From Oscillospiraceae bacterium (GTDB lineage Bacteria; Bacillota; Clostridia; Oscillospirales; Oscillospiraceae), in contig CACXAQ010000013.1 of assembly GCA_902765595.1 (NCBI GenBank), forward strand, positions 1-53,627: 53,627 nt of DNA, given 5' to 3'. The notes beneath the pieces are model-generated. The model did no database searches and was not told where the DNA came from. It saw nothing but the letters and a program-made list of their open reading frames with translations. Of the stretch, positions 28,287 to 49,113 are shown in pieces. The stretch's first letter is position 1; every line of letters begins with the position of its first letter. A program made the translations under genes and the position numbers.

Positions 28287-28437
28287 CAATTGCGAAACTC
28301 GTTTCGCAATTGGTCCTCTCGCGCTCATCGCACTCGGCTTGCGGGGAACAAGCCTCGTTTGGTCGGCGCGAGGCCTCGCTTGGCTCGGCTCAGGGTGTTT
28401 TTGGGGCGGCAAAGCTGCCTCAAAAACGATTTGAATT
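28287..28437. repeat. Multi-hairpin dispersed repeat, copy D
   Basis: A 12-bp perfect hairpin (28287-28298 with 28301-28312) is followed by an outer stem CTCGCGC/GCGCGAG enclosing a hairpin, and by GTTTTTGGGGCGGC-AAA-GCTGCCTCAAAAAC. It matches 45468-45617 in order and structure. It fills most of the efp to CD1247 gap and lies in the 5' leader of the CD1247-type gene. Confidence 0.8.
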
Positions 28438-29883: not shown

Positions 29884-29994
29884 GTCATTGCGAGCCAGTG
29901 CGCACACTGGCGCGGCAATCCGTTCTCCCGGAAATCATGAAGGGATAAGGACGGATTCCCACACCAGTGACCTCCGTCACTGGTTCGGAATGAC
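29884..29994. repeat. Cloverleaf-like paired REP element, copy B
   Basis: Same layout as at 14049: outer GTCATTGCGA/TCGGAATGAC, hairpins GCCAGTG/CACTGGC and ACCAGTGAC/GTCACTGGT, and inner GGCAATCCGT/ACGGATTCCC. The left half is of the G type, the right half of the C type (see findings). Confidence 0.85.
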
Positions 29995-30018
29995 GTTTTC
30001 AGGGGTATCTGAATACGC

Positions 30019-37486: not shown

Positions 37487-37544
37487 GAACAGATAAGAAC
37501 ACGGCGCACGGAATTTTCTCCGTGCGCCGTGTTCTTATCTGTTC
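37487..37544. terminator. Long bidirectional terminator
   Basis: A perfect 26-bp stem, 37487-37512 with 37519-37544, and a 6-nt loop, between the converging YigZ and surface-protein genes. Confidence 0.85.
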
Positions 37545-45467: not shown

Positions 45468-45617
45468 TTCCATGCGAAACTCTGTTTCGCATGGAAAGTA
45501 CTCGCGCTTATCGCACGCGGCTTGCGTAGAACGCCGCGTTTGGTCGGCGCGAGGGCTCGCACAGCTCGCCTTAAGGTGTTTTTGCCGTGGCAGAGCTACG
45601 TCAAAAACGACAGAAAT
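45468..45617. repeat. Multi-hairpin dispersed repeat, copy E
   Basis: Begins 5 nt after the preceding stop with a 13-bp hairpin (45468-45480 with 45484-45496), then CTCGCGC...GCGCGAG around ACGCGGC/GCCGCGT, and GTTTTTGCCGTGGC-AGA-GCTACGTCAAAAAC. Same order as 28287-28437. Confidence 0.8.
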
Positions 45618-46895: not shown

Positions 46896-47057
46896 AAAAC
46901 AGACGCGCTGCAAAATGCGAAGCCCCGTCATTCCGAACCAGTGACCGACGTCACTGGTGTGGGAATCCGTACTATTCTTGTATCGAATACGGATTGCCAC
47001 GACCAGTTTACGAACTGGTCTCGCAATGACAGACGCATTTTGCAGCGCGTCTGTTTT
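46896..47057. terminator. Terminator stem split by a REP element
   Basis: A perfect 24-bp inverted repeat, 46896-46919 with 47034-47057, ends in T6 on the plus strand as an intrinsic terminator should, but its loop is 114 nt long and holds the paired REP element at 46927-47030. Confidence 0.75.
46927..47030. repeat. Cloverleaf-like paired REP element, copy C
   Basis: Outer GTCATTCCGA/TCGCAATGAC, hairpins ACCAGTGAC/GTCACTGGT and GACCAGTT/AACTGGTC, and inner TGTGGGAATCCGTA/TACGGATTGCCACG. Here the left half is of the C type and the right half of the G type. Confidence 0.85.
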
Positions 47058-47062
47058 TTGGA

Positions 47063-47761
47063 TCATTGGAAGATGATCTCCGCCTCCTGGGTGAAGAACA
47101 TGCCGGTGTATTCCTCGAAGGTGATCTCCAGGGTGTAGATCTGCTCGGCGGCGCTCAGCCCCACATAGCGGTAGTGGGCCGCGTCCGCGCTCCGGCCGGT
47201 GATCGCCTCGGCGCCCTGGGGATAGCGAAGGATAAAGCCGTAGCGCCAGCCGTTTTCCTTCATCCAAGTCTGGGCAGCGGCGCCCTGGACATCTATCGCC
47301 AGGCCCAGCTCATGCTCGCTGGTCCCCGGGGTGCCCACCCGCTGCTCAGCAATGGTATAGGCGGTGTCCGCGCTGCGTCCGGCCAGCATTTGCCGGTTCA
47401 CCTCGTTGTTGAAGAGCATCAGCTGCTCCTCCCGGCCGCGGTAGGCCGCCGTGATCGTGATGGAGCAGCCGCTCTCCCGGCAGTCCGCCAGCAGTCGGCT
47501 CAGCTCTCCGGCGCAGCTTTGATCCACCTGCACCCCGTCCACCGTTTTGAGCTTGGGGACGAAGCCGCTTTTATCCACGTCGTTCCAGGGGTTAACCAGC
47601 ACCATCACCCGGGCCTCGTCCCGCTGCTCCATCCAGGCGTGGAGACGGAAGCCCGCCGCCGTCAGCAGCAGGAGCACAAGCACCGCCGCGATGATTTTGA
47701 CGGAGGGCCTCAGCTGCCGTTTTTGCGTGGCCCGCTCCCCCTCTGATTCTTTAAAATGCAT
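47063..47761 (-). CDS. VanY-type M15 family peptidase, altered active site
   Basis: A 232-residue membrane-anchored protein of the D,D-carboxypeptidase VanY family. An N-terminal helix (about 21-40) is followed by the M15B domain. Zinc ligands His150 and Asp157 (SEHELGLAID) and His196 (HYRYVG) are present. The catalytic glutamate of the ExxH motif (EPWH in the neighbour) is Asp193 here (DAAH), so activity may be reduced or changed. Start at 47761 is supported by GAGGCGAT. It is a diverged paralogue of the gene at 48265, separated by a repeat array. Confidence 0.87.
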   Translation of the reverse strand: MHFKESEGERATQKRQLRPSVKIIAAVLVLLLLTAAGFRLHAWMEQRDEARVMVLVNPWNDVDKSGFVPKLKTVDGVQVDQSCAGELSRLLADCRESGCSITITAAYRGREEQLMLFNNEVNRQMLAGRSADTAYTIAEQRVGTPGTSEHELGLAIDVQGAAAQTWMKENGWRYGFILRYPQGAEAITGRSADAAHYRYVGLSAAEQIYTLEITFEEYTGMFFTQEAEIIFQ

Positions 47762-47858
47762 CTGATCGCCTCTTTTCCTGGCTCTCTCAACAGGGCCATG
47801 ATACCATATCAAGGCCCCAAAATACAGTCATTCCCAGCCGAATTCAGAATATTTAAGA

Positions 47859-48201
47859 ATTGCGGGCCGCCGCTGCCTGTGGCAGATAAAGGCGGCCCGC
47901 AATTTCCGCAGCGGTCGAAAAACCGGAGGGAAAGCGTAAGCCCGAACGGTTTTTCGGGTACCGCAAGGCGTTTGAAGGCTTGCGCCGCCAGTGGTGGATG
48001 AAGCGAGCCTTCAATTTCCGCAGCGGTCGAAAAATGCGAGGAATTGCGGCCTTGCGCTGCCGGTGGCAGAAAAAGCAAGGGCGCAATTTCCGCAGCCGCG
48101 CCGTTGGCGGGCCGTTGCGAAGCAGGCCCGGGAACGGCAACTGCGGCAAGGCGGCTCGGCGTAAGCCCGAACGGTTTTTCGGGCACCGCAAGGCGTTTGA
48201 A
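47859..48201. repeat. Array of covarying hairpin units and 43-bp direct repeats
   Basis: Three units share a core GCYGCCnGTGGYRGAnrAA, itself a hairpin, held in a variable outer stem: 47859-47903, 47972-48014 and 48043-48087. Units 1 and 2 are followed by an identical 22-mer starting AATTTCCGCAGCGG (47901-47922, 48013-48034); unit 3 keeps its first 12 bases. A 43-bp segment (47934-47976 and 48159-48201) differs at one base. No credible gene lies in 47762-48264. Confidence 0.85.
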
Positions 48202-48239
48202 AAGGATCCGTCTTCTATAGAAGACGGATCCTTTTCAAA
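48196..48239. repeat. Perfect 44-bp palindrome
   Basis: TTTGAAAAGGATCCGTCTTC, TATA and the exact complement, without any unpaired base. It ends the repeat array and lies 25 nt after the stop of the second VanY-type gene, where it could stop its transcript. Confidence 0.8.
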
Positions 48240-48264
48240 TATGTTCCCGGAAAATCCTTCTTTT

Positions 48265-49113
48265 TCAGCGGCCCTGGCGCAGGGTCAGATACTCCTCCAG
48301 CGTCAGCCCCATGCGGTGGATCTCCTGGGCGTAGGGCTGGCCCACATAGCGGTAATGCCAGGGCTCGTAGATGATGCCCGTGAACTCTGTGGTGCCGTTG
48401 GGGTAACGGAGGATAAAGCCATAGTCCCAGCAGTGCTCCATCAGCCAGATCTGGGAGCGGGTGTTCTCCTGCTCCTCGTCCAGATAGGGGTGCTCCCAAT
48501 CGATGATGTCCACCGCCAGGCCCAGCTGATGCTCGCTGGTGCCGGGCACGGCCACCGTCTGGGCGGCCACCGCGGGCGCGTTCTCCCAGTCGTAATGCTC
48601 CTCCCAGACCAGCTTGCGGATCTTCTCGTTGAAGAGCTGCTCCTGCTTTTCCCAGGTCCGGTGGGCCGAGCATAAATAGGGCTGGGCGCCGGAAGCCCGG
48701 CAGTCGTTCATCATCAGCTTGAAGTCCGCCACGCAGCGGGTATCCAGCCAATAATCCCGGCCCTGCAGACGGTACACGAACTCGATCTCCGGCTCATAGC
48801 CCTCCGGCAGCGGGTTCCAGGGGTTGACCAGCATCAGCAGCTCGGGATTCCCTTCCTGGGGCGCATTCCGCCGCTCCGCCGGCAGCGCTGCCAGCCGCGG
48901 CTCCGCCTCTGCCCACTGGGCCGCGCGGAGGGAAAGCTCGCTCTCCGCCGCCGTGCGGGCCTGCCCGCCCAGCTCCTCCAGCAGGAGCATGGCGTCCTGG
49001 GTCTCCTGCCGGTAGCGGAAGTAGCCCAGCGCGCCCTGGATCAGCAGACCCAGCAGCACGGCCGCCAGCACCAGCAGGATATATCCGGTTTTCCGTTTCT
49101 TTTTAACCTTCAT
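48265..49113 (-). CDS. VanY-type D-alanyl-D-alanine carboxypeptidase
   Basis: A 282-residue protein with an N-terminal membrane helix (about 10-30), a helical linker (about 35-80) and an M15B domain with an intact active site: SEHQLGLAVD (His195, Asp202), YEPWHYRYVG (Glu250, His253). Such enzymes remove the last D-Ala of peptidoglycan stems and are widespread in Clostridia without any link to vancomycin resistance; no vanHAX genes are in the window. It begins 4 nt after mntP and is probably co-transcribed with it. Confidence 0.9.
   Translation of the reverse strand: MKVKKKRKTGYILLVLAAVLLGLLIQGALGYFRYRQETQDAMLLLEELGGQARTAAESELSLRAAQWAEAEPRLAALPAERRNAPQEGNPELLMLVNPWNPLPEGYEPEIEFVYRLQGRDYWLDTRCVADFKLMMNDCRASGAQPYLCSAHRTWEKQEQLFNEKIRKLVWEEHYDWENAPAVAAQTVAVPGTSEHQLGLAVDIIDWEHPYLDEEQENTRSQIWLMEHCWDYGFILRYPNGTTEFTGIIYEPWHYRYVGQPYAQEIHRMGLTLEEYLTLRQGR

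What the first reader, a model, noticed from the sequence alone, without database searches (positions are those of the whole stretch)
47859..48239. Local array of covarying hairpin units between two VanY paralogues
Three units share a nearly constant inner hairpin (CTGCC-nGT-GGCAG, or CCGCC-AGT-GGTGG) inside outer stems whose sequences differ entirely but still pair: 13/13 at 47859-47903, 12/12 with one G-T wobble at 47972-48014, and 12/13 at 48043-48087. The inner stem also shows a T-A to C-G exchange. Units 1 and 2 share a following 22-mer; a 43-bp segment recurs with one difference (47934-47976, 48159-48201) and a 44-bp perfect palindrome closes the array. Structure is kept while sequence changes, which points to a selected RNA or DNA fold. 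I know no named family with this core.
Basis: partly seen in the sequence, partly recalled or inferred. Interest (0 to 1): 0.72.

Follow-up and report, generated by a model that had tools for sequence, protein, structure and literature searches.

The report
Mobile folded repeat inserting at GG
The three hairpins are copies of a previously unnamed, roughly 115-base mobile repeat of gut bacteria that jumps into GG sites and keeps one elaborate fold while much of its sequence changes; no enzyme that moves it was found.

Summary
The three "units" are copies of a ~115 bp interspersed element with two modules: hairpin 1 (15-bp outer stem of nearly free sequence, inner CNGCC-NGN-GGNNG, G/ANNAA internal loop), then CCGC-A, then a second module in two forms (A, B) ending CAAGGYG(G/T). 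In the window, copy 3 (form B) sits inside the loop of copy 2 (form A). A covariance model finds 23 hits in the window's own genome, hits in 73 of 101 same-genus genomes, and hits in 15 of 106 sampled genera of the family. Covariation is strong in both forms (0 of 500 shuffles reach it; sliding partners destroys it), and mismatch types point to the plus strand as the folding one. Empty sites show insertion at GG with GG on both sides (132 of 175 junctions), including a tRNA-Phe D-loop. No Rfam family matches. No gene was seen inside the copies examined; TnpB, reverse transcriptase and Y1 transposase do not track copy number. Best reading: a non-autonomous mobile element whose single-strand fold is needed for mobilisation by an unidentified enzyme. 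The junction resembles IS607, the size REP/MITE elements; it fits neither definition. RNA versus single-stranded DNA is unresolved.

The parts
47857..47970 (+). Element copy 1 (form A), whole; junctions TTTAAG | ... | GTTTGAA (AG/GT class)
   Evidence: CM R2 match 47855-47971, E 3.9e-24 (this copy is in the model's own alignment); ungapped alignment A2
47857..47905 (+). Hairpin 1 of copy 1: outer stem 47857-47871/47891-47905, inner stem 47873-47877/47881-47885, internal loop G47872 against 47886-47890
47906..47971 (+). Second module of copy 1 (form A): CCGC 47906-47909 faces 47968-47971 (the outermost pair, C with T, is not formed here); P2 47911-47915/47960-47964; P3 47916-47925/47947-47956; GTAA loop 47936-47939
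   Evidence: fold, pair counts
47972..48195 (+). Element copy 2 (form A), interrupted by copy 3: 5' part 47972-48041, 3' part about 48155-48195
   Evidence: uninterrupted homologues align across the junction (query L001_B against L018 and L025)
48041..48154 (+). Element copy 3 (form B), nested in the loop of copy 2's second module at a GG
   Evidence: CM R2 match 48039-48154, E 1.1e-11; alignment A3; same nesting at 5 other loci
48196..48239 (.). 44-bp perfect palindrome in the right flank; not part of the element
   Evidence: not seen with other own-genome copies
47063..47812 (-). Flanking VanY-family D-Ala-D-Ala carboxypeptidase gene
   Evidence: Pfam PF02557, 3e-21
48265..49113 (-). Flanking VanY-family gene
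   Evidence: Pfam PF02557, 6e-35

Best explanation
A small non-autonomous mobile element. Shown: about 115 bp, no gene seen inside, dispersed copies, insertion at GG (often GGG) leaving GG on both sides in most cases, and a fold kept through many compensatory changes, with mismatch types pointing to one strand. Inferred: an enzyme acting in trans recognises the folded single strand (as RNA or as displaced single-stranded DNA) rather than a fixed sequence, so only copies that fold spread; the nearly free outer stem is a spacer or handle, while the inner hairpin with its ANNAA loop, the CCGCAGC linker and the CAAGGYG end are the parts that are read. Whether RNA or DNA, and which enzyme, is not shown.
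For: Copies: model R1 gives 23 hits in the own genome and hits in 73 of 101 same-genus genomes, up to 29 in one; 36 of 400 family genomes, 15 of 106 genera. Structure: 12 of 20 pairs changed on both sides in 19 own-genome units; 21 of 43 pairs in 40 form-A and 24 of 42 in 40 form-B copies; none of 500 shuffles reaches any measure, and slid partners pair in at most 53% of cells. Strand: in 174 copies, hairpin 1 holds 69 G-T against 21 A-C, 63 G-G against 1 C-C, 54 G-A/A-G against 2 C-T/T-C (related copies are not independent). Mobility: aligned empty sites, e.g. TTTGG-AGTAC filled as TTTGG[..]GGAGTAC; GG/GG at 132 of 175 junctions. No orientation bias: upstream gene same strand 54, opposite 46, none called 8, of 108 intergenic copies; 21 against 21 to local gene-strand majority.
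Against: No mobilising gene found: no ORF-bearing version, no recurrent neighbour that could move it, no serine recombinase by a crude motif scan of 2.2 Mb of held loci, and no association with Y1_Tnp, RT or TnpB. 13 of 175 junctions read AG, TG or CG on the left and GT on the right and do not fit one clean GG rule; another 30 are other departures. Few copies look decayed (5 of 111 below 12 pairs), which could also mean selection in place.
Confidence: 0.6

Rival explanations
1. A resident structured RNA (regulatory or small RNA) that acts where it lies, and was spread passively.
For: Strong covariation; apical loops fitting GNRA in 43 of 65 form-A copies tallied (the regex may misplace some of the rest); 106 of 111 copies still pair; 108 of 114 copies lie outside predicted genes.
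Against: No orientation bias to neighbouring genes; no promoter-like site in 47700-48400 (0 found, 0.3 expected); nested copies and tRNA D-loop insertion look like transposition; 28 of 101 same-genus genomes have no hit (drafts).
Confidence: 0.17
2. The pairing is kept by mutation, not selection: template switching in quasi-palindromes re-copies one arm from the other.
For: Whole outer arms often differ as blocks yet stay complementary (sequences).
Against: Re-copying should correct mismatches on both strands alike; instead G-T, G-G and G-A outnumber A-C, C-C and C-T (69:21, 63:1, 54:2), though G-G and G-A are partly inherited. The asymmetric G/ANNAA loop and the 3-nt bulge of form A persist, and P3 also covaries (7 of 10 pairs changed on both sides).
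Confidence: 0.08
3. An IS607-type serine transposase moves it as double-stranded DNA; the fold is a remnant of some other RNA function.
For: IS607 insertions are at GG with (G)GG preferred, GG at the transposon ends and no further duplication (PMC6188088, passages); the element shows GG on both sides at 132 of 175 junctions.
Against: 104 different left arms in 174 copies leave little fixed sequence near the left end for a DNA-binding transposase; no TnpB match in any of 19 genomes with 10 or more hits; no serine recombinase by motif in the held loci; AG/GT junctions unexplained. TnpA was not searched genome-wide.
Confidence: 0.15
4. A tiny catalytic RNA element (self-cleaving, or splicing and reverse splicing at GG).
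For: Wobble G-U at the left boundary in 67 of 80 aligned copies (34 of 40, 33 of 40); left GG and right GG can both pair with the same CC of the linker; a tRNA-Phe interrupted in its D-loop is the only tRNA-Phe matched by the pattern in G060, its other arms still able to pair.
Against: 115 nt is very small for splicing; G060 is a 93% complete draft, and the intact orthologue was likewise the only pattern match in 2 of the 4 other genomes tested (G012 had a second gene; G000 has another type), so gene loss or a gap is not excluded; RT in only 8 of 19 high-copy genomes.
Confidence: 0.06

Closest known systems
IS607-family transposons (serine TnpA)
   Same: Target (G)GG, GG at both junctions, no larger duplication (PMC6188088 passages)
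   Different: No gene seen in the copies; about 115 bp; strong single-strand fold; left end not conserved in sequence; 43 of 175 junctions depart from GG/GG
REP / GTAG repeats mobilised by RAYT (Y1_Tnp)
   Same: Short intergenic palindromic repeat, non-coding, many copies, thought mobile (PMC3733652, abstract and section list)
   Different: No GTAG or CGTC foot; two unlike modules, about 115 nt instead of 20-40; the RAYT-like genes in this genome lie among other hairpins
MITE-like RNA-folding repeats such as bcr1 of the Bacillus cereus group (search listing; details recalled)
   Same: Small, dispersed, non-coding, predicted to fold as RNA (recalled)
   Different: Other hosts and other target; no comparison of sequences was run
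HEARO / omega RNAs of IscB and TnpB elements (recalled; search listing)
   Same: Structured RNA in a mobile element, often without ORF (recalled)
   Different: No Rfam match; no TnpB match in 19 of 19 high-copy genomes; IscB not searched

Membership tests
IS607 family | Insertion at GG, GG kept at both ends | tested here: met
   132 of 175 junctions GG/GG; empty sites
IS607 family | Carries serine TnpA (usually with TnpB) | tested here: not met
   No ORF between the ends in the copies examined; TnpB not matched in 19 of 19 high-copy genomes; TnpA sought only by motif in held loci
IS607 family | Short direct repeats near both ends as binding sites | tested here: inconclusive
   CCGCA occurs in linker and right end of form A only
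REP / RAYT | GTAG or CGTC tetranucleotide at the hairpin foot | tested here: not met
   Conserved ends are GG and CAAGGYG
REP / RAYT | Copies flank a RAYT gene; RAYT tracks presence | tested here: not met
   About 1.8 kb around each of 3 own-genome Y1_Tnp matches read, element not seen; Y1_Tnp in 12 of 19 high-copy and 15 of 28 zero-hit genomes
IS200/IS605 (HUH) derivative | Orientation bias to the replication fork | tested here: inconclusive
   21:21 to gene-strand majority; 4:12 to GC skew, with gene-strand bias and skew only weakly correlated (0.21)
MITE | Terminal inverted repeats | tested here: not met
   Ends differ: variable arm against CAAGGYG
MITE | No ORF, many copies, short target duplication | tested here: met
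omega RNA / HEARO | Encoded next to IscB or TnpB | tested here: not met
   No TnpB with high copy number; IscB itself not searched
Any of 4227 Rfam families | Gathering score | tested here: not met
   Window and 10 loci (tRNAs and one STnc490 hit at L111 5838-5949, away from the element); permissive search of the array gave 6 hits below gathering, best E 0.00066, mostly on the palindrome
Self-splicing intron | Excision and ligation of flanks in RNA | not testable with these tools
   needs an RNA assay

The most novel reading that the evidence does not exclude
The element moves as a folded RNA (or folded single-stranded DNA) that reads its own target: its linker CC pairs in turn with the left GG of the target and the GG at its own right end, so a 115-nt non-coding strand is both cargo and guide. 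A variant in another genus (L292) reads GC at both junctions with the guide base changed to G, which would restore the right-hand pair; this is a single case and my parse of it.
Probability: 0.12. Interest if true: 0.87.

Novelty: new variant of a known kind. Interest (0 to 1): 0.62.

Why it matters
Small mobile repeats are common, but selection on a fold is rarely this clear: many copies, in one genome and across genera, whose outer stem is almost free in sequence yet stays paired. That makes it a compact system for asking how a transposition machine recognises shape rather than sequence, and it gives an abundant repeat family of gut Oscillospiraceae-type bacteria a boundary, a target rule and a covariance model. 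If RNA-based, it would be a new kind of minimal guide-bearing mobile element.

Tried and rejected
Integron attC sites: rejected on anatomy only (here ends and inner core are fixed and the outer stem is free; attC knowledge recalled, not tested). Autonomous parent: of 172 right-end regex matches in the loci then held, 31 distinct ones lacked the strict linker; 29 of these still show hairpin 1 and 2 (L100, L156) are unrelated repeats; right ends within 130 nt of a locus start were skipped. 14 of 128 units had no right end by the regex and 4 were longer than 118 nt; read by eye they are nested, truncated, N-filled or divergent, none with a gene. Recurrent neighbours: ABC transporter-like, housekeeping and a few phage genes, no candidate mobiliser (names by eye). 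Association by copy bins 0 / 1-4 / 5-9 / 10+: TnpB 7/28, 5/36, 3/18, 0/19; RT 9/28, 11/36, 4/18, 8/19; Y1_Tnp 15/28, 17/36, 11/18, 12/19 (matches at E <= 0.001, of which only 9 of the 15 TnpB genomes pass the curated cut-off; drafts, so absences are soft). A first ORF-based context test was discarded because spurious GC-rich ORFs dominated; a codon-model caller that recovers the window's genes replaced it; with it 6 of 114 copies, and in a later set 9 of 125, fall inside a predicted gene, which I take for over-long predictions without having proved it. Phage and plasmid collections: no match with one form-A copy; one viral contig by pattern. Literature: searches were aimed at a description of such an element, and none of their listed titles is one; the library is open-access only and most listings were not opened.

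Rows dropped: A1 used 19 of 25 own-genome units (identical, tandem-duplicated or truncated ones left out). A2 used 40 of 44 distinct form-A copies of exactly 112 nt (L018, second L019, L111 and L132 left out); A3 used 40 of 45 form-B copies (second L083, second L084, L124, second and third L181 left out). Form-A copies of other lengths were not aligned. One search stopped on an error at L051, so coordinates of L052 and L053 were set by analogy and seen to be right in the alignment. One search timed out and was replaced. Several weak matches were not inspected one by one.

Full report
OBSERVATION. Hairpin 1 of each unit has a fixed geometry: 15-nt arm, G, CNGCC, NGN, GGNNG, ANNAA, 15-nt arm, CCGCAGC. 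The flanking genes are two VanY-family genes. Rfam has no match at gathering score in the window.

EXTENT. Searching the window's own genome with 421 bases gave 25 matches, among them the window itself and the palindrome matching its own other strand. They showed that the unit does not end at the hairpin: it continues into one of two second modules, form A (GGTCGAAAAA ... GNRA-like loop ... GGGCACCGCAAGG) or form B (CGCGCCNTTGGCGGGCC ... GGCCCGGGAANGGC ... TGCGGCAAGG), followed by Y (112 of 114), G (113 of 114) and G or T (94 and 15 of 114). Information falls below 0.3 bit by the fourth base outside on either side, apart from a weak C-rich stretch on the left. Counted from the first G to the final G, most copies are 109-118 bp. 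In the window, copy 1 is form A (47857-47970); copy 2 is form A, cut in two by copy 3, a form B (48041-48154), at a GG in the loop of copy 2. The same nesting is seen at five other loci (6 of 174 copies).

FOLD. Both forms share one plan: P1 (hairpin 1); then CCGC facing the terminal GYGG; inside it a 5-bp P2 (GCGGT/ACCGC in A, GCCGC/GCGGC in B); then P3 and an apical hairpin. Single-sequence folds of the window copy and of L064, L028 and L182 give this shape; the stretches submitted for L011 was off-register and L015's centroid differs from its minimum-energy fold. For 40 form-A copies 97.7% of cells pair, 21 of 43 pairs change on both sides, 202 cells do; for 40 form-B copies 95.3%, 24 of 42, 211. 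No shuffle of 500 reaches any of the five measures, and sliding the partners by 1-3 columns gives 31-47% paired. The CCGC pairs and P2 hardly vary inside each form, so they rest on comparison between forms and with the divergent subfamily; the outermost CCGC pair is unpaired in 5 of 40 and 12 of 40, and the small apical pairs of form B hold in 74% of cells only. The outer stem was tested without circularity: 111 copies were found by a pattern that specifies only the inner hairpin and the linker, and 106 have 12 or more of 15 outer pairs, with 66 different left arms; swapping arms between copies gives a mean of 9.1 pairs, 15% reaching 12 because subfamilies share arms. Among 174 copies hairpin 1 holds 69 G-T against 21 A-C, 63 G-G against 1 C-C and 54 G-A/A-G against 2 C-T/T-C (related copies are not independent). 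This points to the plus strand as drawn as the folding strand.

DISTRIBUTION. A model of hairpin 1 (R1) hits 73 of 101 genomes sampled from the genus (26 of 34 good-quality ones), 23 times in the window's genome and up to 29 in one, and 36 of 400 genomes of the family, 15 of 106 genera (weak ones not all inspected). One copy lies on a viral contig; phage and plasmid records gave nothing with one form-A query. In other genera a divergent subfamily has the same plan but another linker (CGAGGCAGC or CGCAAGGCAGC) and end (GCAACG); the full-length model R2 aligns end to end with all 8 such loci tried (E 9e-5 to 6e-8).

MOBILITY. Joining the flanks in silico and looking for the empty site gave spanning hits for 75 queries, many of them repeats with small differences; clean ones include TTTGG-AGTAC against TTTGG[element]GGAGTAC, CGGGG-AGAGG, and GTTGG-TAGAGC, where the filled site also has T to C next to the junction. 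At 132 of 175 junctions the two bases on each side are GG and GG; the base before is mostly G too. A second class has AG, TG or CG on the left and GT on the right (10, 2 and 1 of 175); copy 1 of the window is one. For L142 of this class the empty site reads GGGAGTACGG, so one G, not two, seems shared; I have no single cutting rule that covers both classes. Orthologues of the window's intergenic stretch share the TTAAG before the insertion but not the right flank, so they do not settle it. Targets are often hairpin-rich repeats: the left flank ends in a hairpin of 4 or more bp at 75 of 174 sites against 21% of nearby GG sites, and of 5 or more at 23 of 174 against 8.6%. One copy interrupts the D-loop of a tRNA-Phe (L182, genome G060), the only tRNA-Phe found there by the pattern; relatives have the intact gene. 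108 of 114 copies lie outside predicted genes, with no orientation bias (54 against 46 for the upstream gene, 45 against 53 for the downstream one; 21 against 21 to the local majority strand).

ENZYME. None found. No gene was seen between the ends of the copies examined. Neighbouring genes suggest no mobiliser. Y1_Tnp, reverse transcriptase and TnpB do not track copy number; TnpB is not matched in any of the 19 genomes with ten or more hits. The own genome's Y1_Tnp genes sit among a different hairpin repeat.

MECHANISM. I infer a non-autonomous element whose folded plus strand is what the enzyme recognises. The alternatives (resident RNA, template-switch correction, IS607-type double-strand transposition with a vestigial fold, catalytic RNA) are set out above with what would separate them. 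The possible dual pairing of the linker CC with the left GG and with the right GG is suggestive only: the CC is invariant in the 80 aligned copies, so it cannot be tested by covariation there; the divergent subfamily also has GG on its left without an obvious CC; and one outlier (L292) has GC at both junctions with G at the guide position.

VERDICT. A real, widespread family that I could not match to a named one; new variant of a known kind (small mobile palindromic repeat), distinguished by its strongly covarying fold and GG rule. None of the titles listed by the searches aimed at it describes it; that library is open-access only.

Noticed in passing
L057 1192-1773 and L058 1111-1692 (own genome C26, C41): Two Y1_Tnp (RAYT-like) reading frames contain GTAG-type hairpin repeats (GTAGGGGCG...CGCCC or its complement), apparently in frame, and lie near more of them.
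   Followed up: no
L182 about 917-1106 (genome G060, contig C79): A tRNA-Phe gene is interrupted in its D-loop by one element copy; no other tRNA-Phe matched the pattern in that 93% complete draft.
   Followed up: partly
L101, L108, L111, L132, L167, L184, L187, L281, L283, L284, L285, L287, L290: Many copies sit in a similar left context, GAGC...GCTCGTTGG after a TTATGAG-like stretch, most with ...ATAACCCGGAGGTC on the right and several close to tRNA genes, as in a duplicated tRNA end.
   Followed up: no
L307-L319, L323-L326 (other genera): A divergent subfamily of the element with another linker and right end, six matches in G286, several set inside a larger inverted repeat GATGAGGGGGCG...CGCCCCCTCATC.
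   Followed up: partly
L292: Outlier copy that reads GC instead of GG at both junctions, with G instead of C at the linker position that would pair with it.
   Followed up: partly
own genome contig C22: 11 of the 25 own-genome matches lie on one 116-kb contig.
   Followed up: no
window 29948-29995 and 46926-46973: Another dispersed repeat in inverted orientation, 48 nt, 94% complementary, with an ACCAGTGAC...GTCACTGGT core.
   Followed up: no
window 28352-28429 and 45533-45610: 78-nt direct repeat, 82% identical; unidentified.
   Followed up: no
window 37487-37544: Perfect inverted repeat, 26-nt arms and 6 nt between them.
   Followed up: no
L181 4238-7101: Three element copies stand beside two homologous predicted genes (282 and 298 aa), as if element and gene had been duplicated together.
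   Followed up: no
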